Assembly: GCA_963576735.1 (NCBI GenBank)
Contig: OY755180.1
Coordinates: 19,186,678 to 19,250,677 of the forward strand
DNA from: Bedellia somnulentella
Taxonomy: Eukaryota; Arthropoda; Insecta; Lepidoptera; Bedelliidae
DNA length: 64,000 bases
Reading direction: 5' to 3'
Made by a program: the position numbers and the translations under genes. The notes below the pieces were generated by a model that was not told the DNA's origin, made no database searches, and saw only the letters and a list, made by a program, of their open reading frames with translations. Shown here piece by piece: positions 6,580 through 64,000 of the stretch; position 1 is the first letter of the stretch, and each line of letters starts with the position of its first letter.

Positions 6580-6622
6580 TGTTAGGTGGTCAGTGGTGAG
6601 CAAGTCTTTTTAAAAAGATATA

Positions 6623-6628
6623 TTTATT
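6623..6628 (-). terminator. LTR poly(A) signal AATAAA
   Basis: AATAAA on the minus strand, about 43 bases before the LTR's 3' end. This is the usual place for the R/U5 processing signal of a retroelement. The same signal is at the matching place in all later LTRs (offset +43 from each LTR start). Confidence 0.65.
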
Positions 6629-6978
6629 TAAAGTTACAAAGTTACACTTATGAAATAGAATTAAGATATAGAAATAGACTTAGAAATAACGATACAGTGA
6701 GTCTACGTTGAAGTAAGAATTAGAAGTGACATGAGAGGGTGTTGTATGACTATTTATATTGGTTGGGCGAGAAGGGATAGCGTGGGTTGTGAGTTTGTGG
6801 ACAAAGGATCGTTAAGAGATTGATATATTGAGGGATGTCACTAGGGGGTGGCATCTTTATGATGGACAGATGGTTTGAATGTTTTTTGGGAAAGATTGAC
6901 AAACGCTTTTAATGGGGTTGATTTCAAGAACTTGGGAGGGAAAGGTGGAATAGTACAAAAAAGCTAAACATTAAGAGT

Positions 6979-7096
6979 TGACACAAATGGGTATTTACGA
7001 CTAACTTAGTATGATAGCAAAAAGTTAACATAGAAATAGGGTTGACACTTATGGATGTTTATGACTAACATATTTTAAGGTTTACGTGACTAACTT
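6979..7096 (-). promoter_or_regulatory. U3 repeated blocks, candidate enhancer/promoter
   Basis: Two imperfect 30-bp copies (starting GTTGACAC on the plus strand, about 63 bp apart) and a third shorter copy end in the same GACTAAC core. They lie in U3 next to a TATAA-like sequence, where transcription-factor sites would be expected. The function is inferred from position only. The blocks are preserved in all seven complete LTRs. Confidence 0.4.
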
Positions 7097-7183
7097 ATAA
7101 AAGGAAATATAAAAGAATAGGGTACGCTTAACTAATTGTTAAATACAATGGTTGAATACAATGCAATGAGTGGTTACGTAACA

Positions 7184-7194
7184 CCTCCCCCACT
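7184..7194 (-). other. polypurine tract, unit 1
   Basis: AGTGGGGGAGG on the minus strand lies directly against the 5' end of the LTR and would prime plus-strand DNA synthesis. The env stop codon TAG overlaps its first bases. The same tract borders the other LTRs at 15354, 23525, 31695, 39843, 48023 and 56213. Confidence 0.85.
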
Positions 7195-9083
7195 AGAACA
7201 ACGATTGGGGCTTCTTTGGTCGCAATCGTTGTAGACGAGGAGACTGGGAAACATCGGCGTCTTCTTCGGTATATGAGGCTACCGTCTGCTGTGGCTCCAA
7301 TGGGATAACTTGCGTTCTGCGTGATTTGTCGAAACAGTTGTTAAAGATTTGTATGCACCCGCCGTTACCGCTGTGGTTGTGATGATTTCGACTGAATATT
7401 TTCGTTAGTATTCGGAAACAAGGGCAGCATTTGTAGATGCAGTATGTCGTTAATATGATTCCAATACTCCATGTGAATATGTTAAATTTGTTGGAGTGTT
7501 TCTTTAGGAATGTTTCTTCTTGGCTTTGGAGAACTTCTTTGTATTTGTCTAATTGATCTTTAATTGATCCAAGTGAATCCAATTTGATGTTGTTCAATTT
7601 TAATGGAAGAAGATCTGGATTTGAGAGGGCTTCTTTATCGCTTGGCTTTAGGCAGTCTTCTTCTATACTAATCATAATGGTTGGATGAGTATAGTTAGTG
7701 CTTAGTTCGGTGGTGGATGCCAATGTTATAAAACTTGTGAATAGTTTGCAGCTTTCTTCTAGAGTGATGATGCCAGTGTTCTTTAGGTTGTGATTGGATG
7801 ACGATTGACCGCATTGTAGGACACATTGAGTTTCTTCTTGTAGGATGAAAATCCATCGGTTGTTCTTCAATGGCTGGAACGTGTTGATGTTGGCAGGGAA
7901 ATTGTTCAATTTGCATGATTCCGGGATTGTTGGGGTTGTGCTTAGTAGCACGGCAACTTCGCAGGAGGGACGATTGTTGTAGTTATATATTGGAGCATCG
8001 TTACACGCCATTTTCTGAGGTGCGTATGTCTTGCAGCTCTTCAGGTTGTCCAGTGACGCGTAGTGTTGTCTTGTTGAGCTCATGGCCAGATAGTTGTGCT
8101 CAGGGATGAGGGTGGAGTAGATATTGGAAGCGGGATGTTTAAAGGGAATGGAATATATATGATATAGAATAAAGTTTTCGTTTCTTACAAGGGGAAAGTT
8201 TATTACAAAGACTAATTTGTTTTTGTAAATATAAGACGTAATGCTTGACGATTCTATGATTTCGTGAATATTTTGAATCGTAGGAGGTGCAACTAAGTTG
8301 AGTTCATTTCTTGAATGGGCACTAGTAAGCAATTCTTTGTAAATTTGTTCCGTAGATATTATTGAGGGATGAACGGTTCCGGATTTAGCAAATAAAATAC
8401 TTGTGAGAATGTCATTAATTTCTTGTTCGAGGCTAATTACCGATTCTAATAATTGTATGGAAATTGTAGAAATTTCTTCTGTTGCTTGCAAGTTAAATAT
8501 AGCCGTGTTCGTTCGATTTATGTGATTGTTAAGTTGTATCATGTTACGATTGATGATACCTTCATCGAAATTAATTTTTGACATTGTTTCGTTAAAATTA
8601 GAGACAGTTGACGTAATGACTTGGAGTTGTTGCTTTAAAAGTTTATGGGTATCTAATTCTTGTTTTTCTAACAAGCTTATACATTCGTCATAGTACTTTG
8701 CATCTTTGGCATCGGGTGTTCCGATTAGCCATTTAAGGATGGTGCTGAGTCCATCTAGAATTTCGCGTTTAGAGCGACGAACAGTATAAAATTGTAATTC
8801 CGATAAGCGAGATTCAATTTTATCGAGATTTATTTTTAGGAATGATTTCGTCGTATGTACATTTGAAATCGAGGTATGGTTGTATGTTAACGCGTTATAT
8901 GTATTTGAGAGATGATCTAGAGCCTTTTTGGCTTTAAAAACTGGGTCGAGGTCTTTGTAGACAACGAGTTTCCAGGAGCCTTGGGTAATAAGGATATTCC
9001 CTTCCTCTTCATAGTATAGAGAGGATTTTGAGGGAATTTTTTGGATAAGAGGTTCTCCAGCAACTGACAATGTTGTGAAGTAC
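7193..9083 (-). CDS. env: env, main exon, unit 1
   Basis: Envelope glycoprotein of the insect errantivirus/baculovirus F type, a class I membrane-fusion protein. The exon begins at 9083 after the acceptor TTTAACTTACAG. The open frame has no ATG at its start, so it needs the leader exon (splice donor at 14583/14584), which joins in phase and adds about eight codons plus one split codon with two in-frame ATGs. The predicted product is 638 residues. Counting from the TTG at 9070: a furin-type site RRSKR at 98-102, followed at once by a hydrophobic fusion-peptide-like segment (GLSTILKWLIGTPDA); many N-glycosylation sites; a membrane segment at about 529-546 followed by a Cys cluster (KCCPC); then a basic cytoplasmic tail. 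The stop overlaps the polypurine tract. Confidence 0.88.
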
Positions 9084-9096
9084 CTGTAAGTTAAAT
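9083..9096 (-). promoter_or_regulatory. env splice acceptor, unit 1
   Basis: The minus-strand sequence TTTAACTTACAG|G marks the 3' splice site for env mRNA. Joining to the leader donor gives a continuous frame. The same acceptor is found in units 2-7. Unit 4 has lost the six bases just inside the exon but keeps the AG and the phase. Confidence 0.75.
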
Positions 9097-9111
9097 ATTA
9101 TCGCTTATTAT

Positions 9112-9342
9112 CTAAGAAAAAGTTTTTAAATTGTTGATTAATAGTTTTATTCCTATATATAACTTATAGATTAAGATATAGAAGATTAATTTTATAAGAG
9201 AACATATTATAAAGCTAACATATGGATTATTTATTAGGGTTTCCATGTTATACGCTATAGAATTAGTAGAATTAGTATTATTAATAGAATTAGAACTAAA
9301 ATTATTAGAGCTAGGATTAGGATATGCAAGGGTTAGCTGCAT
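9112..9342 (-). CDS. small membrane-protein ORF between pol and env, unit 1
   Basis: A 76-codon ATG-started frame that I do not recognise. Residues 1-35 are rich in Asn and Ser with three N-glycosylation sequons (N14, N21, N24). Residues about 41-66 are strongly hydrophobic (FIICSLIKLIFYILIY within it) and fit one membrane span, followed by a short basic tail. A strong acceptor (CTATTTTTATTTCAG) ends three bases before GAAATG. Splicing from the leader donor would keep this frame and place the same hydrophobic leader ahead of it, giving 86 residues. It lies 55 bases after the pol stop. The same frame occurs at matching places in units 2-6. A membrane-bound accessory glycoprotein is inferred; starting at its own ATG is also possible. 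Confidence 0.6.
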   Translation of the reverse strand: MQLTLAYPNPSSNNFSSNSINNTNSTNSIAYNMETLINNPYVSFIICSLIKLIFYILIYKLYIGIKLLINNLKTFS

Positions 9343-9346
9343 TTCC

Positions 9347-9361
9347 CTGAAATAAAAATAG
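9347..9361 (-). promoter_or_regulatory. second splice acceptor, before the small ORF, unit 1
   Basis: The minus-strand CTATTTTTATTTCAG|GG has a good pyrimidine tract and AG. The exon would start at 9346, four bases before the ORF's ATG, in the same phase as the env acceptor. Units 5 and 6 have one T changed to A in the tract but keep the AG. Confidence 0.55.
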
Positions 9362-9397
9362 ATTTTAGCTGAAACCGATATTAAAATTAATTTGGTT

Positions 9398-12300
9398 TCA
9401 CTTTACGAAATTGTTGTCGCTGTTATTGTTTGCCACAACGACTGGCCTTAAACGGTTAGCGTGGACTAATTGATTTTTACCTGATTTCCTTATTACATAA
9501 TTATGGTTAAAACCGACCCTGACAATCTGGAAGGGGCCTTCCCACTTCGCGTCTAGATTGTTGGGATTCGGTATTCGCAACATGACTTTATCGTTCAGAT
9601 GGAAATCGGCAATGTTTTTAATATTACTATCGTATCTTGTTTTTGCTTTCTCTTTCATATAGTCTACATTTTCGCGGGCTAGGTCTCTTGAGATTTTAAT
9701 TCGTTCTAATAAGTCTTTGAGGTAGTCGGCGGAGGTGTACTCATTAATATCCTTTATGTTATACAAGTTTCTTGGTTTGTAACCAAAAAGTAATTCGTGA
9801 GGTGTAAACCCAGTAGATTGGTTAGTGGAAGTGTTATGGACCATGATAGCGAGAGGTATGATTTGATCCCAATTATAATTCTTTCGATTGTGATACATTC
9901 TAATATGATCTCGTAATACTGCGTGGAATCTTTCAAGAGCTCCGTTAGTTTGAGGGTGGTATGCTGTACTAAGGGTATGGTTACAATTCAATATTTTCAT
10001 TAAGTCTTTAATTAATGAGTTTACAAATTCTCCACCTCTATCAGAATGGAATCTCTTAGGAACACCAAAGTGTTGGCAAAATTTAAGTAATCCTATTGCG
10101 ATTGAGCTTGGTTGCTTGTCTGGAATGGGATATGCTTGAACGAATCTAGTTAGATCGTCTTGAAGAGTTAAAATATATTTATTTTGATCTTTGGTTATAT
10201 CGGAATATGATACGAGATCTATAGTGACTCGTTCGAAGGGTTCAGTGGGGGCTGAAGTGATAACCATTGGGGCTTTGTAAGTTTTTCTTTGAACTTTATT
10301 CCTTTGACATGTGTTACAATTTTCGACATATGTTTTTATTTGTTCACACATGCCTTTCCAAAAATAAAGATCTCTTATCTTTTTTGTTGTTTCGACTATT
10401 CCTCTATGACCTGCGAGGGGATCGTCATGAAATTGTTTCAAGATATTTGGAATGTCATCAGATGCGGGGGTTGTTACTTTATTTTCACATATGGTGATTT
10501 CACAGCCATAATAATCAGCCAGATAAGAAGTTATGTGAAGCTGTTCTTTTCCTTGCATTTTGCAAGTTTTATCATTTTTTAGGCAAGGGACATAAAGAGA
10601 TTTAATATCGTTATTTTGGAGACAGTGTAATAGGGATTTGAAATAGCATTCTGAGTTCCATGGGTCGAAGTGAGTGGGTCTTGTATAAGAAAATATAATA
10701 TTCTGATTAAAGTGAGATGTTAGAGAATCGAATTCGTATAGGTTTTTGTTTCTATCGAGAAATGGTTTCGGTTGGGAACATATAGCTAATGCTTGTTTAT
10801 ATAAATCGTTACTTTCGGATAGAGAACAAGATACCGGAATATAAATATCTTTGTGACGAGTATCTAACAATTGATCAGGAGAGAATTTAATGTTTTTTGG
10901 ATCAAAGTTATCTAATGAAAGGGAAACGAAGTATTCGTAGTTTATTTGTAAATAGTCGTCGCTTTGTTGGTTTTGAGAGGTGCTAGGAATGGCATTAGTA
11001 TGAAGAATGGTATTTTGTGGAGGTCTAGAAAGTGCGTCAGCGTTTGTATTATTTTTTCCAGCTTTATGAACGATTTGATAATCGTATGCTTCTAGTTTGA
11101 GACGCCAGCGAGCTAAGCGACTGCCGGGGTCTTTGATTGAGAACAACCATATGAGTGGTTTGTGGTCGGTGACGACCGTGAATCTTCTGCCAAATAGATA
11201 AGGACGGTAATGTTTTACTGCTTCGACTATTGCAAGGAGTTCGCGTTCGATTGCGGAGTAATTAGTTTCAGCTTTATTAAGAGTACGGGAGTAGTATGCG
11301 ATTGGTAAATCTTTACCTATTTCACCTTGTGAGAGAACAGCGCCTATAGCATATAGTGAGGCATCTGTTGTGAGGACAAATTCCTTCTCGAAGTTGGGGT
11401 ATTGTAAGATCGGTGGGTTTGTTAAAAGTTTTTTACTCTCTTCGAAACAGTCTTGGTGAATCTTGGACCATATAAAAGGTACATCCTTTTTAAGGAGAAG
11501 AGTTAGGGGTTTCGTAATATTGCTAAAGTTTGGGATAAATCTGCGATAGTAACCTGTAAGGCCAAGGAAAGATTTAATATCTTTACAATTTTTCGGTGTA
11601 GGGAAATTGATCACAGCTGATATTTTATCTGGGTTTGGTTTAACGCCTTCACTAGTTATGATATGACCAAGATAAGCGACTTCATGCCGCATGAATTCAC
11701 ATTTGTCTGGTTGGATTTTTAATTGGAATTTTCTAAGACGACTGAAAATTTCACGGAGTTTTTCTTCATGCTCTTGAATGCTAGATGCAAAGCACACTAT
11801 GTCATCTAAATACACAAAGCACCGTTCTCCTTGTAAACCGTAGAGCACAGAGTCCATAACTCTTTGAAATGTTGCAGGAGCATTTTTGAGGCCAAAGGGC
11901 ATTCGTTTGAATTCAAAATGCCCGTACGGAGTGTTGAATGCTGTCTTCGAAATGTCAGAGGGATTAACTTCTAATTGATGGAAGCCTGACGCCAAATCGA
12001 GCGTAGAAAAGTACTTTGAATGACCTAGTTTATCTAAGATGTCCGTAATATTTGGTAATGGGTAGCTATCCCCGATAGTAATGTCATTAAGTTTGCGATA
12101 ATCGATGACTAGACGCCATTTTTGTTTACCGGATGCGTCTAATTTCTTCGGGACGACCCATATAGGACTACTCCACGGAGAAGAGCTAGGCTGTATTATA
12201 TTTTGTTCGAGCATTTTATTAACCTGAGTTTTTACTTCTTCTTCATGGACTTTTGGGAAGCGGTATGTTTTCGAGTGAATTGGGATTTGAGAAGTTGTAG

Positions 12301-13502
12301 GTATTGAGTGTTTGGTGTGATTACTAAACGATAGTGGATCACCTTCTACATAGAATATATCTGAGAATTCTTCTACAATTCTCATTAGAGAGGATTTTTC
12401 TTCCGAGTTCAAATGTTCGTTCCTTATAAGATTTGAAACTACATTTTTCCTATTGGGATTTGAAGCAATTGGATTCGCATTACTACTTTCGGTAATGTTA
12501 TAGTAATTTATTTGTGCCGTATTTAAATAAATGGAGTGGCTTCCATTATTGGAGTATCTATTGTTACATCGTTGTCGGTTATATTGAGGCAGGTTATTAA
12601 AAATGTATTATTTCGAACCTCAACTAATGATTCAGGTATAAGGATGCCTTCTGCTAGGCTTTGTTTTTTTATGAGTGCGGTTCCCGAGTCCATTGTGTTT
12701 GTATTGCACATTATTACTGTTTCCGATCGGCTATTCAGACTGTGTTCTAAGGTTGAGCAATTGTGTTCATTTAAGTAGTGCAACCGATAAGTTTTATCTT
12801 TAATGTGCATAGTTTTTGATTTAATGTATAACTTGGTATTGAAATAGGATAGAAAATCATTACCTAGAATTCCGTCTGCTTTTATATTAATATCCGCAAC
12901 GTGGAATTTGAATTGTGGGAAATTATCTAAAGATATTTTGGCTGTTCCGTAGCTCCTAATTGAGTTTTGTCCTGAAGATATACCCATAATGGATATGATT
13001 TCGGAGTTATCAATTTTAGAGGACCATATTTTGTTTTTTTGCATAACAGAAATAGCGGCGCCTGTGTCTACGAGTAGCGTTACTGGTTGTCCGTCTATGT
13101 GGAGAGTACAGTGCAATAAATTTTCGGGAGGCACGTTTTCTATTAAAGATATTGTATATTCCGTTAGTTTAATTTCGGGTGTTTTATTTATTTTCTTAGT
13201 TTTAGAACGGCATTTTTTTATTTTGCGTTGTTTGTTTGATTTAGTATTTGTTTTTTGAGACGATTGAGTCGATTGAGACGATTGAGTCGATTGAGTCGAT
13301 TGAGTCGATTGAGACGATTGAGACGATTGAGACGATTGAGACGATTGAGACGATTGAGACGATTGAGGCGATTGAGACGATTGAGTCGATTGAGACGATT
13401 GAGGCGATTGAGACGATTGAGGCGATTGAGGCGATTGAGACGATTGAGTCGATTGGTGGTTCGTTTGCGTACTTGCATCTGCTTTTAATTTAATTGGAGG
13501 TG
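9398..13502 (-). pseudogene. pol: pol (protease-RT-RNase H-integrase), frameshifted, unit 1
   Basis: Ty3/gypsy-type Pol, read in the -1 frame relative to gag. The frame is open from 13581 through the minisatellite, which it reads as a Ser/Thr/Gln linker. Aspartic protease DTG follows (LLVDTG, near 13066). Using the numbering of the downstream frame that starts at 12412: RT motif MPFG near 171-174, YLDD 201-204; RNase H TTDAS near 347 and NADALS; integrase H661/H668/C698/C701 zinc site and catalytic D731, D790, E826 (D,D35E spacing). A WEGPFQIVRV module lies near the end. A one-base deletion in the A run at 12525-12527 (three A instead of four) separates protease from RT, so this copy should not make complete Pol. 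The annotated start is just after the candidate slip site, as no initiation codon is used. Confidence 0.88.
13257..13454 (-). repeat. 9-bp minisatellite, 22 units, unit 1
   Basis: Tandem GA(C/T/G)CGATTGA-type 9-bp units between gag and the protease. Units differ at one base (plus strand GAC, GTC or GGC before GATTGA). Since nine is a multiple of three and no unit makes a stop, all frames stay open. In the pol frame it encodes a Ser-Ser/Thr-Gln repeat. In the gag frame, after the gag stop, it would read as Arg-Leu-Asn, which is probably not translated. Confidence 0.93.
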
Positions 13503-14438
13503 GTTTAACTCCTCCACAGGGAATGAGCTGTTTGTCTCGGCCGTGGAATCGCTCGTGTTCCCGACCTCGAATAAGTTTAAATTATTGACTCTTGCAGTTG
13601 ATTGGTTGTTTGGCTGCATCGAGTTTCTATATGCCCTTTTTCGGCATTCGCTAATGAGATGCCCCATATTTTTGCAGTAACTACATATTTTTGTGGGGAA
13701 ATTCCCATTAGATTGATTGTGTACTGGGACTTGAAGCCTAGAGTTTGTTGATGAATTATTGGGTACTGAGGGCCTGTAATTTGATTTGAATGGTGGTCTC
13801 AGCCCGGTATTAATTGAAATCGGTCGGTTTGTTTTGAAAAGTGATTGCCTAGCACCGTTCATCTTTCGTATCTTATCCTCTTGGATAGCAAAATTAGCGG
13901 CATCTGACAAGTTCGAAAAGTCCCTAGTTCTTAACATAGTGCCGATATCGGAACTGAGTCCGTTTACAAAAACATTAAGGGCGGTTTCTTCCGTAGAAGC
14001 TTTACGACCGGCTAACGTTGCATCGTTTATTTCGCCTGCGAGCTTCTCAATTATTTTAGACCTACATAGGTCGACGCGGTGGAAATAATCGGTGATTGAT
14101 TCCGCCGGTTTTTGGAACATACTCTGTAGTTCTATGCTAATATGTGAGATGGTTTTCACATTAGAGAATCTACTAATTAAGAATTGCTTTAGAATGTCCC
14201 AGTTTTCAAAAGTTCGAATATGTACATCGGAAGCATTATGCCCTATAATTTTATTTAAAGTAAGTACTAGCAGTATTTCCTTTTTATCTTCGCTTGCTAA
14301 GGAAAACGCCGTGTCACAAGATCGAACAAATCTATAGATTTGTTCCGGGTTAGAAGTATCGAAAGTGGGAATTAATTGAGTTAAGGTTCCCAAATCGAAA
14401 TTGGACATGAATAGTTTTGATTCGTTAGAGTTCGGCAT
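13485..14438 (-). CDS. gag: gag, unit 1
   Basis: Structural protein of the retroelement particle, 317 residues from an ATG at 14436-14438. The N-terminal two thirds are helical capsid-like sequence (IYRFVRSCDTAF; SITDYFHRV near 116-124). The C-terminal part is basic and Ser/Asn-rich and contains one CCHC zinc knuckle at about 252-265 (CSYCKNMGHLISEC) for RNA binding. The stop TAA is at 13485-13487. The pol frame overlaps the last 97 bases, allowing -1 frameshifting. A short leader uORF precedes it in unspliced RNA. Confidence 0.9.
   Translation of the reverse strand: MPNSNESKLFMSNFDLGTLTQLIPTFDTSNPEQIYRFVRSCDTAFSLASEDKKEILLVLTLNKIIGHNASDVHIRTFENWDILKQFLISRFSNVKTISHISIELQSMFQKPAESITDYFHRVDLCRSKIIEKLAGEINDATLAGRKASTEETALNVFVNGLSSDIGTMLRTRDFSNLSDAANFAIQEDKIRKMNGARQSLFKTNRPISINTGLRPPFKSNYRPSVPNNSSTNSRLQVPVHNQSNGNFPTKICSYCKNMGHLISECRKRAYRNSMQPNNQSTARVNNLNLFEVGNTSDSTAETNSSFPVEELNHLQLN
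13503..13509 (-). promoter_or_regulatory. candidate -1 frameshift site GTTAAAC
   Basis: GTTAAAC is read G TTA AAC in the gag frame, 16 bases before the gag stop and inside the gag/pol overlap. This heptamer is a known functional slip sequence in arteriviruses. GGAGG and CCTCC flank it and could pair around it. It is present at the same place in all units (21674, 29844, 37991, 46172, 54361, 62625). Confidence 0.5.
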
Positions 14439-14727
14439 TGTTATTAATTTAAATGAGGCTGTTGAAAATAGGAATTAAAGGATGTGTAACAAAAAAAAAT
14501 ATATAAATATATAGAGATTTAGTAGATTTTGATAAATATATTAAAACGTTGGAAGGATTAGGAATAGAGCAAACTTTACTCACCAGAGCACCAACATGGA
14601 AAAAAACATAGTCACGAAAGTAGCAGGTTCGGCAGCTCCTCTTGAAGTCCCAGGGACACCGTTAATTATTAATTTTAATCAACGTTACGAAGCTGACTTT
14701 ACTTCACTTTACTTGCAAAGATGCTTT
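14439..14727 (-). promoter_or_regulatory. untranslated leader with splice donor and uORF, unit 1
   Basis: The leader between the primer site and gag contains CTCTG|GTGAGTAAAG, a near-consensus splice donor with the exon ending at 14584. Two in-frame ATGs (14607-14609, 14595-14597) precede it. In unspliced RNA the frame from the first ATG stops at a TGA (14580-14582) inside the donor, making a nine-codon uORF. After splicing, the same codons open into env or the small ORF. All seven units keep this arrangement. Confidence 0.75.
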
Positions 14728-14745
14728 ATCCTACCGACTGCGCCA
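14728..14745 (-). other. primer binding site (tRNA-Ser type), unit 1
   Basis: TGGCGCAGTCGGTAGGAT on the minus strand is complementary to a tRNA 3' end of the form ATCCTACCGACTGCGCCA, ending in CCA. This resembles insect tRNA-Ser, the primer used by several Drosophila errantiviruses. Four bases (AATT) separate it from the LTR. It is a primer site, not a tRNA gene. Confidence 0.82.
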
Positions 14746-14749
14746 AATT

Positions 14750-15353
14750 TGTTAGGTGGTCAGTGGTGAACAAGTCTTTTTAAAAAGATATATTTATTTA
14801 AAGTTACAAAGTTACACTTATGAAATAGAATTAAGATATAGAAATAGACTTAGAAATAACGATACAGTGAGTCTACGTTGAAGTAAGAATTAGAAGTGAC
14901 ATGAGAGGGTGTTGTATGACTATTTATATTGGTTGGGCGAGAAGGGATAGCGTGGGTTGTGAGTTTGTGGACAAAGGATCGTTAAGAGATTGATATATTG
15001 AGGGATGTCACTAGGGGGTGGCATCTTTATGATGGACAGATGGTTTGAATGTTTTTTGGGAAAGATTGACAAACGCTTTTAATGGGGTTGATTTCAAGAA
15101 CTTGGGAGGGAAAGGTGGAATAGTACAAAAAAGCTAAACATTAAGAGTTGACACAAATGGGTATTTACGACTAACTTAGTATGATAGCAAAAAGTTAACA
15201 TAGAAATAGGGTTGACACTTATGGATGTTTATGACTAACATATTTTAAGGTTTACGTGACTAACTTATAAAAGGAAATATAAAAGAATAGGGTACGCTTA
15301 ACTAATTGTTAAATACAATGGTTGAATACAATGCAATGAGTGGTTACGTAACA
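14750..15353 (-). repeat. LTR2 (604 bp)
   Basis: Serves as 5' LTR of unit 1 and 3' LTR of unit 2. Poly(A) signal at 14793-14798. It differs from LTR1 at the base matching 6600. Confidence 0.9.
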
Positions 15354-15362
15354 CCTCCCCCA

Positions 15363-17253: not shown

Positions 17254-17281
17254 CTGTAAGTTAAATATTATCGCTTATTAT

Positions 17282-17512: not shown

Positions 17513-17567
17513 TTCCCTGAAATAAAAATAGATTTTAGCTGAAACCGATATTAAAATTAATTTGGTT

Positions 17568-50181: not shown

Positions 50182-50236
50182 TTCCCTGAAATATAAATAG
50201 ATTTTAGCTGAAACCGATATTAAAATTAATTTGGTT

Positions 50237-54360: not shown

Positions 54361-55296
54361 GTTTAACTCCTCCACAGGGAATGAGCTGTTTGTCTCGGCC
54401 GTGGAATCGCTCGTGTTCCCGACCTCGGATAAGTTTAAATTATTGACTCTTGCAGTTGATTGGTTGTTTGGCTGCATCGAGTTTCTATATGCCCTTTTTC
54501 GGCATTCGCTAATGAGATGCCCCATATTTTTGCAGTAACTACATATTTTTGTGGGGAAATTCCCATTAGATTGATTGTGTACTGGGACTTGAAGCCTAGA
54601 GTTTGTTGATGAATTATTGGGTACTGAGGGCCTGTAATTTGATTTGAATGGTGGTCTCAGCCCGGTATTAATTGAAATCGGTCGGTTTGTTTTGAAAAGT
54701 GATTGCCTAGCACCGTTCATCTTTCGTATCTTATCCTCTTGGATAGCAAAATTAGCGGCATCTGACAAGTTCGAAAAGTCCCTAGTTCTTAACATAGTGC
54801 CGATATCGGAACTGAGTCCGTTTACAAAAACATTAAGGGCGGTTTCTTCCGTAGAAGCTTTACGACCGGCTAACGTTGCATCGTTTATTTCGCCTGCGAG
54901 CTTCTCAATTATTTTAGACCTACATAGGTCGACGCGGTGGAAATAATCGGTGATTGATTCCGCCGGTTTTTGGAACATACTCTGTAGTTCTATGCTAATA
55001 TGTGAGATGGTTTTCACATTAGAGAATCTACTAATTAAGAATTGCTTTAGAATGTCCCAGTTTTCAAAAGTTCGAATATGTACATCGGAAGCATTATGCC
55101 CTATAATTTTATTTAAAGTAAGTACTAGCAGTATTTCCTTTTTATCTTCGCTTGCTAAGGAAAACGCCGTGTCACAAGATCGAACAAATCTATAGATTTG
55201 TTCCGGGTTAGAAGTATCGAAAGTGGGAATTAATTGAGTTAAGGTTCCCAAATCGAAATTGGACATGAATAGTTTTGATTCGTTAGAGTTCGGCAT
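54343..55296 (-). CDS. gag: gag, unit 6
   Basis: 317 residues with the Ser variant, identical to unit 5. Leader donor at 55441, primer site 55586-55603. Confidence 0.9.
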   Translation of the reverse strand: MPNSNESKLFMSNFDLGTLTQLIPTFDTSNPEQIYRFVRSCDTAFSLASEDKKEILLVLTLNKIIGHNASDVHIRTFENWDILKQFLISRFSNVKTISHISIELQSMFQKPAESITDYFHRVDLCRSKIIEKLAGEINDATLAGRKASTEETALNVFVNGLSSDIGTMLRTRDFSNLSDAANFAIQEDKIRKMNGARQSLFKTNRPISINTGLRPPFKSNYRPSVPNNSSTNSRLQVPVHNQSNGNFPTKICSYCKNMGHLISECRKRAYRNSMQPNNQSTARVNNLNLSEVGNTSDSTAETNSSFPVEELNHLQLN

Positions 55297-55607
55297 TGTT
55301 ATTAATTTAAATGAGGCTGTTGAAAATAGGAATTAAAGGATGTGTAACAAAAAAAAATATATAAATATATAGAGATTTAGTAGATTTTGATAAATATATT
55401 AAAACGTTGGAAGGATTAGGAATAGAGCAAACTTTACTCACCAGAGCACCAACATGGAAAAAAACATAGTCACGAAAGTAGCAGGTTCGGCAGCTCCTCT
55501 TGAAGTCCCAGGGACACCGTTAATTATTAATTTTAATCAACGTTACGAAGCTGACTTTACTTCACTTTACTTGCAAAGATGCTTTATCCTACCGACTGCG
55601 CCAAATT

Positions 55608-56212
55608 TGTTAGGTGGTCAGTGGTGAACAAGTCTTTTTAAAAAGATATATTTATTTAAAGTTACAAAGTTACACTTATGAAATAGAATTAAGATATAGA
55701 AATAGACTTAGAAATAACGATACAGTGAGTCTACGTTGAAGTAAGAATTAGAAGTGACATGAGAGGGTGTTGTATGACTATTTATATTGGTTGGGCGAGA
55801 AGGGATAGCGTGGGTTGTGAGTTTGTGGACAAAGGATCGTTAAGAGATTGATATATTGAGGGATGTCACTAGGGGGTGGCATCTTTATGATGGACAGATG
55901 GTTTGAATGTTTTTTTGGGAAAGATTGACAAACGCTTTTAATGGGGTTGATTTCAAGAACTTGGGAGGGAAAGGTGGAATAGTACAAAAAAGCTAAACAT
56001 TAAGAGTTGACACAAATGGGTATTTACGACTAACTTAGTATGATAGCAAAAAGTTAACATAGAAATAGGGTTGACACTTATGGATGTTTATGACTAACAT
56101 ATTTTAAGGTTTACGTGACTAACTTATAAAAGGAAATATAAAAGAATAGGGTACGCTTAACTAATTGTTAAATACAATGGTTGAATACAATGCAATGAGT
56201 GGTTACGTAACA
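55608..56212 (-). repeat. LTR7 (605 bp)
   Basis: Has the extra T near 55910, as LTR5. Poly(A) signal at 55651-55656. Confidence 0.9.
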
Positions 56213-56221
56213 CCTCCCCCA

Positions 56222-58112
56222 CTAGAACAACGATTGGGGCTTCTTTGGTCGCAATCGTTGTAGACGAGGAGACTGGGAAACATCGGCGTCTTCTTCGGTA
56301 TATGAGGCTACCGTCTGCTGTGGCTCCAATGGGATAACTTGCGTTCTGCGTGATTTGTCGAAACAGTTGTTAAAGATTTGTATGCACCCGCCGTTACCGC
56401 TGTGGTTGTGATGATTTCGACTGAATATTTTCGTTAGTATTCGGAAACAAGGGCAGCATTTGTAGATGCAGTATGTCGTTAATATGATTCCAATACTCCA
56501 TGTGAATATGTTAAATTTGTTGGAGTGTTTCTTTAGGAATGTTTCTTCTTGGCTTTGGAGAACTTCTTTGTATTTGTCTAATTGATCTTTAATTGATCCA
56601 AGTGAATCCAATTTGATGTTGTTCAATTTTAATGGAAGAAGATCTGGATTTGAGAGGGCTTCTTTATCGCTTGGCTTTAGGCAGTCTTCTTCTATACTAA
56701 TCATAATGGTTGGATGAGTATAGTTAGTGCTTAGTTCGGTGGTGGATGCCAATGTTATAAAACTTGTGAATAGTTTGCAGCTTTCTTCTAGAGTGATGAT
56801 GCCAGTGTTCTTTAGGTTGTGATTGGATGACGATTGACCGCATTGTAGGACACATTGAGTTTCTTCTTGTAGGATGAAAATCCATCGGTTGTTCTTCAAT
56901 GGCTGGAACGTGTTGATGTTGGCAGGGAAATTGTTCAATTTGCATGATTCCGGGATTGTTGGCGTTGTGCTTAGTAGCACGGCAACTTCGCAGGAGGGAC
57001 GATTGTTGTAGTTATATATTGGAGCATCGTTACACGCCATTTTCTGAGGTGCGTATGTCTTGCAGCTCTTCAGGTTGTCCAGTGACGCGTAGTGTTGTCT
57101 TGTTGAGCTCATGGCCAGATAGTTGTGCTCAGGGATGAGGGTGGAGTAGATATTGGAAGCGGGATGTTTAAAGGGAATGGAATATATATGATATAGAATA
57201 AAGTTTTCGTTTCTTACAAGGGGAAAGTTTATTACAAAGACTAATTTGTTTTTGTAAATATAAGACGTAATGCTTGACGATTCTATGATTTCGTGAATAT
57301 TTTGAATCGTAGGAGGTGCAACTAAGTTGAGTTCATTTCTTGAATGGGCACTAGTAAGCAATTCTTTGTAAATTTGTTCCGTAGATATTATTGAGGGATG
57401 AACGGTTCCGGATTTAGCAAATAAAATACTTGTGAGAATGTCATTAATTTCTTGTTCGAGGCTAATTACCGATTCTAATAATTGTATGGAAATTGTAGAA
57501 ATTTCTTCTGTTGCTTGCAAGTTAAATATAGCCGTGTTCGTTCGATTTATGTGATTGTTAAGTTGTATCATGTTACGATTGATGATACCTTCATCGAAAT
57601 TAATTTTTGACATTGTTTCGTTAAAATTAGAGACAGTTGACGTAATGACTTGGAGTTGTTGCTTTAAAAGTTTATGGGTATCTAATTCTTGTTTTTCTAA
57701 CAAGCTTATACATTCGTCATAGTACTTTGCATCTTTGGCATCGGGTGTTCCGATTAGCCATTTAAGGATGGTGCTGAGTCCATCTAGAATTTCGCGTTTA
57801 GAGCGACGAACAGTATAAAATTGTAATTCCGATAAGCGAGATTCAATTTTATCGAGATTTATTTTTAGGAATGATTTCGTCGTATGTACATTTGAAATCG
57901 AGGTATGGTTGTATGTTAACGCGTTATATGTATTTGAGAGATGATCTAGAGCCTTTTTGGCTTTAAAAACTGGGTCGAGGTCTTTGTAGACAACGAGTTT
58001 CCAGGAGCCTTGGGTAATAAGGATATTCCCTTCCTCTTCATAGTATAGAGAGGATTTTGAGGGAATTTTTTGGATAAGAGGTTCTCCAGCAACTGACAAT
58101 GTTGTGAAGTAC
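56222..58112 (-). CDS. env: env, main exon, unit 7
   Basis: Open, protein as unit 1; a base difference at 56963 is silent in env. The acceptor (exon start 58112) lies about 85 bp from the insertion and is unchanged. Confidence 0.87.
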
Positions 58113-58185
58113 CTGTAAGTTAAATATTATCGCTTATTATCTAAGAAAAAGTTTTTAAATTGTTGATTAATAGTTTTATTCCTAT

Positions 58186-58298
58186 ATATAACTTATCGAA
58201 GACCTGTTTCGCCTAGCCCAAGACCAAAGGGGATACTCGGAGCTGACTGCCAACCTCCAGTAGTGGAGAGGCACTAGAAGAAGAAGAATATAACTTAT
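58186..58298 (+). mobile_element. 91-bp LINE/SINE-tail insertion with 11-bp target duplication
   Basis: ATATAACTTAT occurs at 58186-58196 and again at 58288-58298, flanking 91 bp that are absent from the other six units. The insert ends in an AGAAGAAGAAGA tail on the plus strand and contains CCAACCTCCAGTAGTGGAGA, typical of a 5'-truncated non-LTR element or SINE. The gain of 102 bp (insert plus one duplication) fits the longer period of this unit. The exact family is not known to me. Confidence 0.85.
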
Positions 58299-58473
58299 AG
58301 ATTAAGATATAGAAGATTAATTTTATAAGAGAACATATTATAAAGCTAACATATGGATTATTTATTAGGGTTTCCATGTTATACGCTATAGAATTAGTAG
58401 AATTAGTATTATTAATAGAATTAGAACTAAAATTATTAGAGCTAGGATTAGGATATGCAAGGGTTAGCTGCAT
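58213..58473 (-). pseudogene. small membrane-protein ORF, interrupted, unit 7
   Basis: The first 62 residues, including the Asn-rich part and most of the membrane segment, match the other units. The insertion replaces the C-terminal tail with a Ser-rich unrelated end, giving 86 codons. The acceptor before it (exon start 58477) is intact. Confidence 0.7.
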
Positions 58474-58528
58474 TTCCCTGAAATAAAAATAGATTTTAGC
58501 TGAAACCGATATTAAAATTAATTTGGTT

Positions 58529-61500
58529 TCACTTTACGAAATTGTTGTCGCTGTTATTGTTTGCCACAACGACTGGCCTTAAACGGTTAGCGTAGACTAA
58601 TTGATTTTTACCTGATTTCCTTATTACATAATTATGGTTAAAACCGACCCTGACAATCTGGAAGGGGCCTTCCCACTTCGCGTCTAGATTGTTGGGATTC
58701 GGTATTCGCAACATGACTTTATCGTTCAGATGGAAATCGGCAATGTTTTTAATATTACTATCGTATCTTGTTTTTGCTTTCTCTTTCATATAGTCTACAT
58801 TTTCGCGGGCTAGGTCTCTTGAGATTTTAATTCGTTCTAATAAGTCTTTGAGGTAGTCGGCGGAGGTGTACTCATTAATATCCTTTATGTTATACAAGTT
58901 TCTTGGTTTGTAACCAAAAAGTAATTCGTGAGGTGTAAACCCAGTAGATTGGTTAGTGGAAGTGTTATGGACCATGATAGCGAGAGGTATGATTTGATCC
59001 CAATTATAATTCTTTCGATTGTGATACATTCTAATATGATCTCGTAATACTGCGTGGAATCTTTCAAGAGCTCCGTTAGTTTGAGGGTGGTATGCTGTAC
59101 TAAGGGTATGGTTACAATTCAATATTTTCATTAAGTCTTTAATTAATGAGTTTACAAATTCTCCACCTCTATCAGAATGGAATCTCTTAGGAACACCAAA
59201 GTGTTGGCAAAATTTAAGTAATCCTATTGCGATTGAGCTTGGTTGCTTGTCTGGAATGGGATATGCTTGAACGAATCTAGTTAGATCGTCTTGAAGAGTT
59301 AAAATATATTTATTTTGATCTTTGGTTATATCGGAATATGATACGAGATCTATAGTGACTCGTTCGAAGGGTTCAGTGGGGGCTGAAGTGATAACCATTG
59401 GGGCTTTGTAAGTTTTTCTTTGAACTTTATTCCTTTGACATGTGTTACAATTTTCGACATATGTTTTTATTTGTTCACACATGCCTTTCCAAAAATAAAG
59501 ATCTCTTATCTTTTTTGTTGTTTCGACTATTCCTCTATGACCTGCGAGGGGATCGTCATGAAATTGTTTCAAGATATTTGGAATGTCATCAGATGCGGGG
59601 GTTGTTACTTTATTTTCACATATGGTGATTTCACAGCCATAATAATCAGCCAGATAAGAAGTTATGTGAAGCTGTTCTTTTCCTTGCATTTTGCAAGTTT
59701 TATCATTTTTTAGGCAAGGGACATAAAGAGATTTAATATCGTTATTTTGGAGACAGTGTAATAGGGATTTGAAATAGCATTCTGAGTTCCATGGGTCGAA
59801 GTGAGTGGGTCTTGTATAAGAAAATATAATATTCTGATTAAAGTGAGATGTTAGAGAATCGAATTCGTATAGGTTTTTGTTTCTATCGAGAAATGGTTTC
59901 GGTTGGGAACATATAGCTAATGCTTGTTTATATAAATCGTTACTTTCGGATAGAGAACAAGATACCGGAATATAAATATCTTTGTGACGAGTATCTAACA
60001 ATTGATCAGGAGAGAATTTAATGTTTTTTGGATCAAAGTTATCTAATGAAAGGGAAACGAAGTATTCGTAGTTTATTTGTAAATAGTCGTCGCTTTGTTG
60101 GTTTTGAGAGGTGCTAGGAATGGCATTAGTATGAAGAATGGTATTTTGTGGAGGTCTAGAAAGTGCGTCAGCGTTTGTATTATTTTTTCCAGCTTTATGA
60201 ACGATTTGATAATCGTATGCTTCTAGTTTGAGACGCCAGCGAGCTAAGCGACTGCCGGGGTCTTTGATTGAGAACAACCATATGAGTGGTTTGTGGTCGG
60301 TGACGACCGTGAATCTTCTGCCAAATAGATAAGGACGGTAATGTTTTACTGCTTCGACTATTGCAAGGAGTTCGCGTTCGATTGCGGAGTAATTAGTTTC
60401 AGCTTTATTAAGAGTACGGGAGTAGTATGCGATTGGTAAATCTTTACCTATTTCACCTTGTGAGAGAACAGCGCCTATAGCATATAGTGAGGCATCTGTT
60501 GTGAGGACAAATTCCTTCTCGAAGTTGGGGTATTGTAAGATCGGTGGGTTTGTTAAAAGTTTTTTACTCTCTTCGAAACAGTCTTGGTGAATCTTGGACC
60601 ATATAAAAGGTACATCCTTTTTAAGGAGAAGAGTTAGGGGTTTCGTAATATTGCTAAAGTTTGGGATAAATCTGCGATAGTAACCTGTAAGGCCAAGGAA
60701 AGATTTAATATCTTTACAATTTTTCGGTGTAGGGAAATTGATCACAGCTGATATTTTATCTGGGTTTGGTTTAACGCCTTCACTAGTTATGATATGACCA
60801 AGATAAGCGACTTCATGCCGCATGAATTCACATTTGTCTGGTTGGATTTTTAATTGGAATTTTCTAAGACGACTGAAAATTTCACGGAGTTTTTCTTCAT
60901 GCTCTTGAATGCTAGATGCAAAGCACACTATGTCATCTAAATACACAAAGCACCGTTCTCCTTGTAAACCGTAGAGCACAGAGTCCATAACTCTTTGAAA
61001 TGTTGCAGGAGCATTTTTGAGGCCAAAGGGCATTCGTTTGAATTCAAAATGCCCGTACGGAGTGTTGAATGCTGTCTTCGAAATGTCAGAGGGATTAACT
61101 TCTAATTGATGGAAGCCTGACGCCAAATCGAGCGTAGAAAAGTACTTTGAATGACCTAGTTTATCTAAGATGTCCGTAATATTTGGTAATGGGTAGCTAT
61201 CCCCGATAGTAATGTCATTAAGTTTGCGATAATCGATGACTAGACGCCATTTTTGTTTACCGGATGCGTCTAATTTCTTCGGGACGACCCATATAGGACT
61301 ACTCCACGGAGAAGAGCTAGGCTGTATTATATTTTGTTCGAGCATTTTATTAACCTGAGTTTTTACTTCTTCTTCATGGACTTTTGGGAAGCGGTATGTT
61401 TTCGAGTGAATTGGGATTTGAGAAGTTGTAGGTATTGAGTGTTTGGTGTGATTACTAAACGATAGTGGATCACCTTCTACATAGAATATATCTGAGAATT

Positions 61501-62624
61501 CTTCTACAATTCTCATTAGAGAGGATTTTTCTTCCGAGTTCAAATGTTCGTTCCTTATAAGATTTGAAACTACATTTTTCCTATTGGGATTTGAAGCAAT
61601 TGGATTCGCATTACTACTTTCGGTAATGTTATAGTAATTTATTTGTGCCGTATTTAAATAAATGGAGTGGCTTCCATTATTGGAGTATCTATTGTTACAT
61701 CGTTGTCGGTTATATTGAGGCAGGTTATTAAAAATGTATTATTTCGAACCTCAACTAATGATTCAGGTATAAGGATGCCTTCTGCTAGGCTTTGTTTTTT
61801 TATGAGTGCGGTTCCCGAGTCCATTGTGTTTGTATTGCACATTATTACTGTTTCCGATCGGCTATTCAGACTGTGTTCTAAGGTTGAGCAATTGTGTTCA
61901 TTTAAGTAGTGCAACCGATAAGTTTTATCTTTAATGTGCATAGTTTTTGATTTAATGTATAACTTGGTATTGAAATAGGATAGAAAATCATTACCTAGAA
62001 TTCCGTCTGCTTTTATATTAATATCCGCAACGTGGAATTTGAATTGTGGGAAATTATCTAAAGATATTTTGGCTGTTCCGTAGCTCCTAATTGAGTTTTG
62101 TCCTGAAGATATACCCATAATGGATATGATTTCGGAGTTATCAATTTTAGAGGACCATATTTTGTTTTTTTGCATAACAGAAATAGCGGCGCCTGTGTCT
62201 ACGAGTAGCGTTACTGGTTGTCCGTCTATGTGGAGAGTACAGTGCAATAAATTTTCGGGAGGCACGTTTTCTATTAAAGATATTGTATATTCCGTTAGTT
62301 TAATTTCGGGTGTTTTATTTATTTTCTTAGTTTTAGAACGGCATTTTTTTATTTTGCGTTGTTTGTTTGATTTAGTATTTGTTTTTTGAGACGATTGAGT
62401 CGATTGAGACGATTGAGTCGATTGAGTCGATTGAGACGATTGAGACGATTGAGACGATTGAGACGATTGAGACGATTGAGACGATTGAGGCGATTGAGAC
62501 GATTGAGTCGATTGAGACGATTGAGGCGATTGAGACGATTGAGGCGATTGAGGCGATTGAGACGATTGAGTCGATTGGTGGTTCGTTTGCGTACTTGCAT
62601 CTGCTTTTAATTTAATTGGAGGTG
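58529..62624 (-). pseudogene. pol: pol, frameshifted, unit 7
   Basis: Same one-base loss as units 1 and 3 (A run at 61656-61658). It has a private His to Tyr change near the C-terminus (QLVYANR). RT, RNase H and integrase motifs are intact in the downstream frame. Confidence 0.87.
62388..62576 (-). repeat. 9-bp minisatellite, 21 units, unit 7
   Basis: Equals the unit 1/3 map minus one T-type unit in the early run, which fits slippage by one repeat. Confidence 0.92.
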
Positions 62625-63560
62625 GTTTAACTCCTCCACAGGGAATGAGCTGTTTGTCTCGGCCGTGGAATCGCTCGTGTTCCCGACCTCGAATAAGTTT
62701 AAATTATTGACTCTTGCAGTTGATTGGTTGTTTGGCTGCATCGAGTTTCTATATGCCCTTTTTCGGCATTCGCTAATGAGATGCCCCATATTTTTGCAGT
62801 AACTACATATTTTTGTGGGGAAATTCCCATTAGATTGATTGTGTACTGGGACTTGAAGCCTAGAGTTTGTTGATGAATTATTGGGTACTGAGGGCCTGTA
62901 ATTTGATTTGAATGGTGGTCTCAGCCCGGTATTAATTGAAATCGGTCGGTTTGTTTTGAAAAGTGATTGCCTAGCACCGTTCATCTTTCGTATCTTATCC
63001 TCTTGGATAGCAAAATTAGCGGCATCTGACAAGTTCGAAAAGTCCCTAGTTCTTAACATAGTGCCGATATCGGAACTGAGTCCGTTTACAAAAACATTAA
63101 GGGCGGTTTCTTCCGTAGAAGCTTTACGACCGGCTAACGTTGCATCGTTTATTTCGCCTGCGAGCTTCTCAATTATTTTAGACCTACATAGGTCGACGCG
63201 GTGGAAATAATCGGTGATTGATTCCGCCGGTTTTTGGAACATACTCTGTAGTTCTATGCTAATATGTGAGATGGTTTTCACATTAGAGAATCTACTAATT
63301 AAGAATTGCTTTAGAATGTCCCAGTTTTCAAAAGTTCGAATATGTACATCGGAAGCATTATGCCCTATAATTTTATTTAAAGTAAGTACTAGCAGTATTT
63401 CCTTTTTATCTTCGCTTGCTAAGGAAAACGCCGTGTCACAAGATCGAACAAATCTATAGATTTGTTCCGGGTTAGAAGTATCGAAAGTGGGAATTAATTG
63501 AGTTAAGGTTCCCAAATCGAAATTGGACATGAATAGTTTTGATTCGTTAGAGTTCGGCAT
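62607..63560 (-). CDS. gag: gag, unit 7
   Basis: 317 residues, identical to unit 1 (Phe variant). Leader donor at 63705, primer site 63850-63867. Confidence 0.9.
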   Translation of the reverse strand: MPNSNESKLFMSNFDLGTLTQLIPTFDTSNPEQIYRFVRSCDTAFSLASEDKKEILLVLTLNKIIGHNASDVHIRTFENWDILKQFLISRFSNVKTISHISIELQSMFQKPAESITDYFHRVDLCRSKIIEKLAGEINDATLAGRKASTEETALNVFVNGLSSDIGTMLRTRDFSNLSDAANFAIQEDKIRKMNGARQSLFKTNRPISINTGLRPPFKSNYRPSVPNNSSTNSRLQVPVHNQSNGNFPTKICSYCKNMGHLISECRKRAYRNSMQPNNQSTARVNNLNLFEVGNTSDSTAETNSSFPVEELNHLQLN

Positions 63561-63871
63561 TGTTATTAATTTAAATGAGGCTGTTGAAAATAGGAATTAA
63601 AGGATGTGTAACAAAAAAAAATATATAAATATATAGAGATTTAGTAGATTTTGATAAATATATTAAAACGTTGGAAGGATTAGGAATAGAGCAAACTTTA
63701 CTCACCAGAGCACCAACATGGAAAAAAACATAGTCACGAAAGTAGCAGGTTCGGCAGCTCCTCTTGAAGTCCCAGGGACACCGTTAATTATTAATTTTAA
63801 TCAACGTTACGAAGCTGACTTTACTTCACTTTACTTGCAAAGATGCTTTATCCTACCGACTGCGCCAAATT

Positions 63872-64000
63872 TGTTAGGTGGTCAGTGGTGAACAAGTCTT
63901 TTTAAAAAGATATATTTATTTAAAGTTACAAAGTTACACTTATGAAATAGAATTAAGATATAGAAATAGACTTAGAAATAACGATACAGTGAGTCTACGT
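63872..64000 (-). repeat. LTR8, partial (129 bp)
   Basis: The start of the eighth LTR matches the others, with A at the base where LTR1 has G, and includes the poly(A) signal at 63915-63920. Whether this is the right end of the array or another unit follows cannot be seen. Confidence 0.88.

What the first reader, a model, noticed from the sequence alone, without database searches (positions are those of the whole stretch)
6580..64000. At least seven errantivirus units in tandem sharing single LTRs
Units follow LTR-internal-LTR-internal with no host DNA or target duplications between them, all in one orientation, for over 57 kb. Independent insertions would not give this. Unequal crossing over between LTRs or insertion of a rolling-circle/one-LTR-circle concatemer would. 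Differences between copies (minisatellite length, lesions, insertion in unit 7) argue against a simple assembly loop. Long arrays of an env-bearing retroelement are unusual and could act as a satellite-like or small-RNA-producing locus.
Basis: partly seen in the sequence, partly recalled or inferred. Interest (0 to 1): 0.8.

Follow-up and report, generated by a model that had tools for sequence, protein, structure and literature searches.

The report
Sixteen-unit tandem moth retrovirus array
Near one end of a moth or butterfly contig, an insect retrovirus is repeated head-to-tail sixteen times, and the sequence suggests that two separate insertions were joined and then multiplied by faulty chromosome exchange, like a satellite repeat in the making.

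Summary
From 6580 to the window's end, seven complete 8.15-8.26 kb units of one env-bearing errantivirus run head-to-tail, sharing single ~604-bp LTRs. The source assembly shows the whole array: 16 units, 128.5 kb, C12:19193257-19321763, 21 kb from the contig end, where a 183-bp satellite lies.
The origin is probably not concatemer insertion. Both outer ends are exact LTR termini, but their flanking 4-mers differ (CGCT, ATAT), whereas a single provirus on C6 has a perfect 4-bp duplication. The right end lies inside the terminal repeat of a Polinton-like element; that site is uninterrupted at 10 of 10 other places fetched, and its missing half does not border the array's left end. The right-most 2.3 kb is of another lineage.
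Differences among the main units look neutral, are reshuffled, and block U3-U6 recurs as U11-U14. Best reading: two insertions fused by recombination, then expansion by unequal exchange. A haplotype-join artefact cannot be excluded without reads. Known kind of structure; unusually long and informative.

The parts
1..6579 (.). Left flank: AT-rich DNA with repeat fragments; last ~100 bp are 70% G+C and end in CGCT at the LTR terminus
6580..7183 (-). LTR1, outermost LTR of the array; one private substitution not seen in any of the other 17 LTR copies compared (16 array LTRs, one of C6)
6580..14749 (-). Unit 1 (LTR + internal region; env 7193-9097, pol 9398-13581 in two frames, gag 13485-14474)
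14750..22920 (-). Unit 2
22921..31090 (-). Unit 3; 8 clustered env substitutions private among the window units
31091..39237 (-). Unit 4; env 2 codons shorter (6-bp in-frame deletion)
39238..47418 (-). Unit 5
47419..55607 (-). Unit 6
55608..63871 (-). Unit 7, with a private insertion
58197..58287 (+). 91-bp insertion in unit 7 with an 11-bp direct duplication (58186-58196 / 58288-58298) and an AGA-rich end; reads like the truncated 3' end of a non-LTR retrotransposon
   Evidence: sequence; translated tail; LINE resemblance recalled
63872..64000 (-). LTR8, cut by the window end; array goes on for 71 kb to C12:19321763
13255..13455 (-). 9-bp minisatellite in the start of the pol frame, read as Ser-Ser-Gln / Ser-Pro-Gln / Ser-Thr-Gln repeats; one per unit, 14-24 copies over the 16 array units
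48032..49936 (-). env frame of unit 6 (634 aa, Baculo_F; RSKR at residue 108); open at 632-634 aa in 7 of 7 window units

Best explanation
A 128.5-kb, 16-unit array of one lepidopteran errantivirus, close to a contig end. Shown: units alternate internal region and single LTR; the two outer ends are exact LTR termini in different surroundings without a matching target duplication; the right-most 2.3 kb belongs to another lineage of the element; differences among the main units are neutral-like, reshuffled, and partly duplicated in an ordered block. Inferred: two copies of the element inserted independently, one at a CGCT site and one inside the terminal repeat of a Polinton-like element (ATAT site). 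Homologous recombination between them fused the two loci, leaving the left flank of one and the right flank of the other, with the intervening or reciprocal part lost. The resulting direct repeats of LTR and internal region then expanded and were partly homogenised by unequal exchange (crossing over and conversion) between sister or homologous chromatids, including at least one exchange offset by about 8 units. Each inner LTR is at once the 3' LTR of one unit and the 5' LTR of the next. The array now behaves like a very long-period satellite made of whole proviruses.
For: Structure. Flanks: left CGCT, right ATAT; the single C6 provirus has AACG on both sides, so the family does make 4-bp duplications. 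The right-flank sequence continues uninterrupted past ATAT at 10 of 10 other places fetched and in the element's own opposite terminal repeat; over 787-977 bp further out, 9 of those 10 match that opposite repeat at 98.5-99.6%; the 2.2 kb of left flank next to the array has no match to it. Distances per 10 kb: 12 main units among themselves mean 13.3; U16 to them 49-62; C6 to them 55-69; U16 to C6 50. U16 has 30 fixed differences from the main units: 2 in the LTR, none in unit positions 603-5843, 28 in 5844-8126; 17 of the 30 equal C6, i.e. a crossover-like switch. Coding changes between lineages 24 synonymous: 12 non-synonymous, within main units 11: 27, Fisher P = 0.002. Exchange: 24 of 78 pairs of informative sites fail the four-gamete test in the 12 main units; 17 of 36 in the window alone, 8 of 21 with substitutions only. 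Lag-8 pairs are closest, 6.3 per 10 kb (4 pairs), P = 0.0014 in one of 13 lags tried. U9 and U15 share one deletion junction; U12/U13 and U15/U16 share minisatellite alleles.
Against: No reciprocal product (Polinton-like end + ATAT + LTR) was found in the assembly (one pattern, up to 2 mismatches); the searches of the left flank and of the left-site counterpart did not complete. The left flank does hold short pieces (49-255 bp, 80-90% identical, same orientation) related to the outer end of the Polinton-like element, at 1151-1220, 3376-3530 and 4146-4388, so an old relative of that element near the left site, and a common origin of both flanks, is not fully excluded. Neighbouring units are not significantly more alike in the window (P = 0.25) and only weakly so in the array (P = 0.06). 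U16-private coding changes are 0 synonymous: 4 non-synonymous, so the selection signal comes from the C6 branch (16:4) and from the sites that separate the main units from U16 and C6 (8:4, P = 0.038), not from U16 itself. A lost or rearranged flank after a single insertion would also give mismatched ends. No reads were available, and an ordered lag-8 block could also come from joining two haplotypes.
Confidence: 0.57

Rival explanations
1. One insertion only. The element integrated once in the Polinton-like terminal repeat, expanded in place by unequal exchange between its LTRs, and the left flank was later replaced by an unrelated rearrangement.
For: Expansion by exchange is seen in any case. 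Terminal units of arrays escape homogenisation (recalled), so a diverged U16 is expected at an edge. The left flank holds diverged pieces of Polinton-like end sequence.
Against: The left end is an exact LTR terminus, which a random rearrangement would rarely leave. The pieces in the left flank are only 80-90% identical, scattered, and 2.2 kb or more from the array, while other copies of that end are 98.5-99.6% identical. The sites separating the main units from U16 and C6 are 8:4 synonymous to non-synonymous against 11:27 within the main units, as lineages that replicated separately would be.
Confidence: 0.22
2. Insertion of a ready-made concatemer, or repeated recombination of one-LTR circles into a resident provirus.
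For: Tandem LTR elements with one shared LTR could come from one-LTR circular DNA or tandem transcripts; PMC11899658 discusses this (passages read).
Against: An integrase-made concatemer should carry one matching 4-bp duplication; it does not. Ordered duplication of a four-unit block and a shared deletion junction need exchange within the array. Circles could still have supplied some units, such as the U9/U15 haplotype.
Confidence: 0.1
3. Assembly artefact: fewer units per chromosome, with two haplotypes or dispersed copies strung together by the assembler.
For: The lag-8 similarity would also arise if two ~8-unit haplotypes were joined. No reads could be inspected, and the assembly method is unknown.
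Against: Unit-specific substitutions, private insertions with their own duplications (U7, U12, U16), deletions and minisatellite lengths; longest exact repeat in the window part 6,647 bp, shorter than typical long reads (recalled); the repeated block is colinear for only 4 units. Only two other copies of 99% or more with the LTR-env junction are listed outside the array, one of them a fragment (lower bounds), too few to build 16 units from dispersed copies.
Confidence: 0.1

Closest known systems
Tandem LTR-retrotransposons of rice and other plants sharing inner LTRs (PMC11899658; abstract, sections 8, 9 and 10, and passages read)
   Same: Alternating LTR and internal region with single shared inner LTRs; internal regions 94% and 99% identical at the two loci described.
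   Different: The two rice loci described have two units each and a matching target duplication, and the authors exclude fusion of two nearby insertions at TLI1; here 16 units, an env-bearing animal element, and mismatched flanks that point to fusion.
Cassandra long tandem arrays in plants (PMC7215508; abstract and passages read)
   Same: Tandem arrays of an LTR element, up to 12 repeats; unequal crossing over proposed.
   Different: Short non-coding TRIM elements; no gag, pol or env.
Tandem TE insertions as a source of satellites in Drosophila (McGurk and Barbash; recalled, not held)
   Same: Two insertions of one family as the seed of an array (recalled). PMC11899658 cites 'previous data on Drosophila' for tandem TE insertions.
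   Different: Not compared directly; nothing of that paper was seen here.
Kangaroo centromeric retrovirus arrays (KERV by recall; seen only as cited in PMC11899658)
   Same: Tandem structures like these, reported at centromeres of two kangaroo species.
   Different: Mammal, centromere; here an insect, near a contig end.
Insect errantiviruses / iERVs (PMC12992720; passages read)
   Same: gag, pol, F-type env between LTRs.
   Different: The one passage with 'tandem' there is about a 151-bp repeat in a 5' UTR, not arrays of whole elements.

Membership tests
Errantivirus (insect endogenous retrovirus, Metaviridae) | gag, pol (protease, RT, RNase H, integrase) and F-type env between LTRs | tested here: met
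   Pfam: Baculo_F 6e-43, RVT_1, RT_RNaseH, rve, retroviral protease; Retrotrans_gag 3e-4 but below its cut-off
Errantivirus (insect endogenous retrovirus, Metaviridae) | Relatives are insect env proteins | tested here: met
   35 relatives among 7991 scored candidates, best 65% identity; 8 of 35 carry an organism name, all lepidopteran (Galleria, Plutella, Brenthis, Ostrinia, Anticarsia, Cydia)
Errantivirus (insect endogenous retrovirus, Metaviridae) | LTR with TG...CA ends and 4-bp target duplication | tested here: met
   604-bp LTR, TGTTA...TAACA; AACG duplication at the single C6 copy
Errantivirus (insect endogenous retrovirus, Metaviridae) | Infectious particles | not testable with these tools
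   none
Tandem LTR-retrotransposon | Internal regions alternating with single shared LTRs, LTR at both ends | tested here: met
Tandem LTR-retrotransposon | Whole array flanked by one matching target duplication (as in the rice loci described) | tested here: not met
   CGCT left, ATAT right
Array seeded by two independent insertions | Two different integration sites at the two ends | tested here: met
   diverged pieces of the right-hand element in the left flank keep this short of proof
Array seeded by two independent insertions | End units from different replicated lineages | tested here: met
   Right 2.3 kb of U16 against the main units; P = 0.038 for the selection contrast on those sites, 0:4 on U16's own
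Satellite DNA | Tandem units homogenised by exchange | tested here: met
Satellite DNA | High-copy, non-coding repeat forming heterochromatin | tested here: inconclusive
   Only 16 units, with long open frames; chromatin not testable
piRNA cluster | Small RNAs made from the locus | not testable with these tools
   none
Polinton/Maverick (right flank) | Long terminal inverted repeats, retroviral-type integrase, DNA polymerase, packaging ATPase, capsid genes | tested here: inconclusive
   Inverted repeats and integrase with chromodomain met; ATPase hit weak and below cut-off, no polymerase or capsid model hit

The most novel reading that the evidence does not exclude
An ectopic exchange between two retroviral insertions joined two distant stretches of DNA, so that the array marks the fusion point of a rebuilt chromosome end; afterwards recombination, not retrotransposition, made nearly all near-identical copies of this family in the genome and is turning whole proviruses into a chromosome-end satellite.
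Probability: 0.25. Interest if true: 0.65.

Novelty: new member of a known kind. Interest (0 to 1): 0.45.

Why it matters
How tandem LTR elements start is left open in the plant study read here (PMC11899658). This locus offers a readable case: two ends with different integration sites, a lineage switch inside the last unit, and sixteen units whose variants record later exchanges. It also shows an envelope-bearing insect retrovirus whose near-identical copies lie mostly at one locus (13 of the 15 listed LTR-env junctions at 99% or more, a lower-bound count) and were, by inference, made there by recombination; this matters for copy-number and activity estimates made from assemblies.

Tried and rejected
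Simple assembly loop: rejected on unit-specific variants; haplotype joining could not be rejected.

Concatemer or circle insertion as sole origin: disfavoured by the flanks.

Conversion of unit 3's env by a functional relative: its 8 clustered changes are mostly non-synonymous, so unlikely; one of the eight, and two of unit 3's changes in pol, recur in U11, so they are not all private to unit 3.

Adjacency in the window: not significant (P = 0.25); the minisatellite gave no neighbour signal either (P = 0.92, lag 2 P = 0.09).

Related arrays in viral contigs: two scans with env found no relatives. Papers: nine searches; in their listings I saw no title reporting an insect array of this length, but most papers were seen only as listings. 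Passages were read in PMC13172572, PMC12992720, PMC6516634 and PMC9659126 and the abstract of PMC12368964; none described such an array in what I saw. McGurk and Barbash is not held.

Not answered: own-genome search of the left flank, of a gag piece (49, 56, 59, 99, 103, 107, 109), of a pol piece (50) and of the left-site counterpart pattern (101, 106, 110). The reciprocal-product pattern was answered with 0 matches.

The diverged pieces found there made me lower the best explanation from 0.60 to 0.57 and raise the single-insertion rival from 0.20 to 0.22.
Full report
OBSERVATION. The window holds one long direct-repeat array. Self-alignment gives a period of about 8,170 bp from 6580 to 64000 at 99.4-99.9% identity. 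LTRs start at 6580, 14750, 22921, 31091, 39238, 47419, 55608 and 63872, the last cut by the window end. The seven complete LTRs are 604-605 bp, begin TGTTA and end TAACA on the + strand, and are bordered directly by internal sequence: the 60 nt to the left of LTR2-LTR8 is identical in 7 of 7, the 60 nt to the right of LTR1-LTR7 comes in two versions. Unit lengths are 8170, 8171, 8170, 8147, 8181, 8189 and 8264 bp.

WHAT THE UNIT IS. On the minus strand each unit carries gag (329-aa frame, open in 7 of 7), pol and env (632-634-aa frame, open in 7 of 7); pol is one uninterrupted frame in 3 of 7 window units, while three share a frameshift and one has an in-frame stop. Pfam finds Baculo_F in env (6e-43), protease, RT, RNase H and integrase in pol, and a sub-cut-off gag hit. 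Env has an RSKR site at residue 108. Of 7991 candidates scored, 35 env relatives were found, up to 65% identical; the 8 that carry an organism name are all from moths or butterflies. This is a lepidopteran errantivirus. The sequence just inside the 5' LTR reads as a primer-binding site starting TGGCGC; that it fits the tRNA-Ser site of 17.6/297-type elements is recalled, not tested. A 9-bp minisatellite in the start of the pol frame codes for Ser-Ser-Gln-like repeats and changes length in whole codons.

THE WHOLE LOCUS. The own-genome search placed the window at C12:19186678-19250677 of a 548.9-Mb assembly in 486 contigs. Fetching the rest and comparing it with unit 1 gives 16 units from C12:19193257 to 19321763, 128.5 kb: U8, U11, U13 and U14 are full-length; U9 and U15 lack the same stretch from inside the LTR into env, with an identical junction; U10 has a large deletion; U12 carries a 4,793-bp insertion with a GTAT duplication, direct terminal repeats identical over about 300 bp, and RT, RNase H and integrase domains; U16 carries a 419-bp insertion with an A-rich end. 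Read as they stand, the 329-aa gag frame is open in 16 of 16 units and the 632-634-aa env frame in 13 of 16. The last LTR ends at 19321763. The contig ends at 19343138, inside a 183-bp satellite that begins near 19334615. Of 15 listed matches of 99% or more that cover the LTR-env junction, 13 are in this array, one is a complete single provirus on C6 and one is a fragment on C35; such counts are lower bounds by the tool's own statement.

THE ENDS. Both outer ends are exact LTR termini. The 4 nt outside are CGCT on the left and ATAT on the right. The C6 provirus has AACG on both sides and 0 differences in 604 bp between its LTRs, so this family makes 4-bp duplications and the array's ends do not match. 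The right flank lies in a terminal inverted repeat of an element with a chromodomain integrase, Polinton-like in layout, though no polymerase or capsid model gave a hit. At 10 of 10 other places that I fetched (of 33 matches listed, this locus included; some are the two ends of one element), and at the opposite terminal repeat of the same element, the sequence runs on uninterrupted to the left of ATATGACATTG. Further out, 9 of the 10 match that opposite repeat over 787-977 bp at 98.5-99.6%; the tenth (L034) shares only the last ~30 nt. The array's left flank is different: its last 120 nt, and the 2.2 kb next to the array, show no match to this outer end. Against this clean picture, the left flank does hold short pieces, 49-255 bp and 80-90% identical, of related sequence at 1151-1220, 3376-3530 and 4146-4388; similar pieces lie near the C35 copy, so they look like a dispersed repeat, but an old relative of the Polinton-like element cannot be excluded. 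On balance the two ends come from two integration sites. A search for the missing counterpart (Polinton-like end + ATAT + LTR) found nothing in the assembly.

LINEAGES. Counting substitutions outside the minisatellite, the 12 main units U1-U8 and U11-U14 differ by 13.3 per 10 kb on average. U16 differs from them by 49-62, the independent C6 copy by 55-69, and U16 from C6 by 50. U16's 30 fixed differences from the main units are 2 in the LTR and 28 in positions 5844-8126; 17 of the 30 equal C6. So U16 is a mosaic: main type over most of its left part, another lineage on its right, next to the right flank. U9 and U15 carry a third haplotype in their left parts (13 per 10 kb between them, 29-43 to main units). 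Coding changes between the lineages are 24 synonymous to 12 non-synonymous, those within the main units 11 to 27 (P = 0.002), and the first departs from the neutral 24.5% synonymous expected (P = 1e-7). The caveat is that U16's own private coding changes are 0 to 4; the signal comes from the C6 branch (16:4) and the sites separating the main units from U16 and C6 (8:4, P = 0.038). In plain terms the lineages diverged while replicating, and the main units' differences arose after amplification. U9, U10, U15 and U16 were left out of the 12 'main units' because of deletions or divergence.

EXCHANGE. In the window, 17 of 36 pairs of shared variants fail the four-gamete test, 8 of 21 with substitutions only. 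Over the 12 main units it is 24 of 78, with at least 4 recombination intervals. About 0.02 coincidental double hits would be expected in the window set, so the sharing is not chance. Of 13 lags tried, lag 8 has the smallest distance (6.3 per 10 kb, 4 pairs, P = 0.0014; about 0.02 after allowing for 13 lags). Pairing U3-U6 with U11-U14 in order ties for the best of 24 orders. U12/U13 and U15/U16 share minisatellite alleles, and a pol frameshift is shared by the non-adjacent U1, U3, U7 and U11 and absent from C6. Neighbours are only weakly more alike (P = 0.06), and not in the window (P = 0.25). This is what unequal exchange in a short array would give; joining of two haplotypes could mimic the lag-8 part.

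MECHANISM. Best supported: two independent insertions fused by recombination, which gives a tandem with one shared LTR, the left flank of one and the right flank of the other; then growth and partial homogenisation by unequal exchange; then private insertions in U7, U12 and U16. Fusion and exchange are inferred from the sequence; no intermediate was seen. Single insertion with later loss of a flank remains possible. Concatemer insertion alone does not explain the ends.

COMPARISON. Tandem LTR elements with shared inner LTRs are known. PMC11899658 (abstract, sections 8-10 and passages) describes them as frequent in rice and other plants, with a matching target duplication at both loci described in detail, and leaves the origin open. 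Cassandra arrays reach 12 repeats (PMC7215508; abstract and passages). Kangaroo and Drosophila cases are cited in PMC11899658; the Drosophila paper was not held. So this is a known kind of structure, here in an env-bearing insect retrovirus, with more units than in those I read of, and with ends that tell its origin.

VERDICT. Real in the assembly, and more informative than the window alone shows. Number of units per chromosome, small-RNA output and chromatin state need reads and experiments.

Noticed in passing
L021:3615-9999 and L022 (C12:19334615-19343138): A 183-bp satellite (34.9 copies in L021, going on to the contig end by eye) follows the array and the Polinton-like element; it may be this species' chromosome-end satellite.
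   Followed up: partly
L018:665-9901, L021 (C12:19321764 on): Polinton-like element with long inverted terminal repeats; near-identical ends in several other places of the genome, so probably recently active.
   Followed up: partly
window 13255-13455 and equivalents: Coding 9-bp minisatellite (Ser-Ser/Pro/Thr-Gln) at the start of pol, 14-24 copies across the array units and 22 in the C6 copy.
   Followed up: partly
window 1151-1220, 3376-3530, 4146-4388, 6348-6470: Short diverged relatives of sequence that also lies in the outer end of the Polinton-like element (first three) or near the C35 copy; probably a dispersed repeat.
   Followed up: partly
window 4543-5304: THAP9-like transposase fragment on the minus strand; the best relative with an organism name is from Colias.
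   Followed up: partly
C30:3410275-3450724 and C30:3818576-3822634: Several 89-92% relatives of the LTR-env region, four places within 41 kb and two further on, not at 8-kb spacing; perhaps an older, broken-up cluster.
   Followed up: no
L012:3459-8251 (in U12): A 4.8-kb LTR retrotransposon with identical terminal repeats, inserted in one unit only; a stretch near its end reads like part of a tRNA (recalled).
   Followed up: partly
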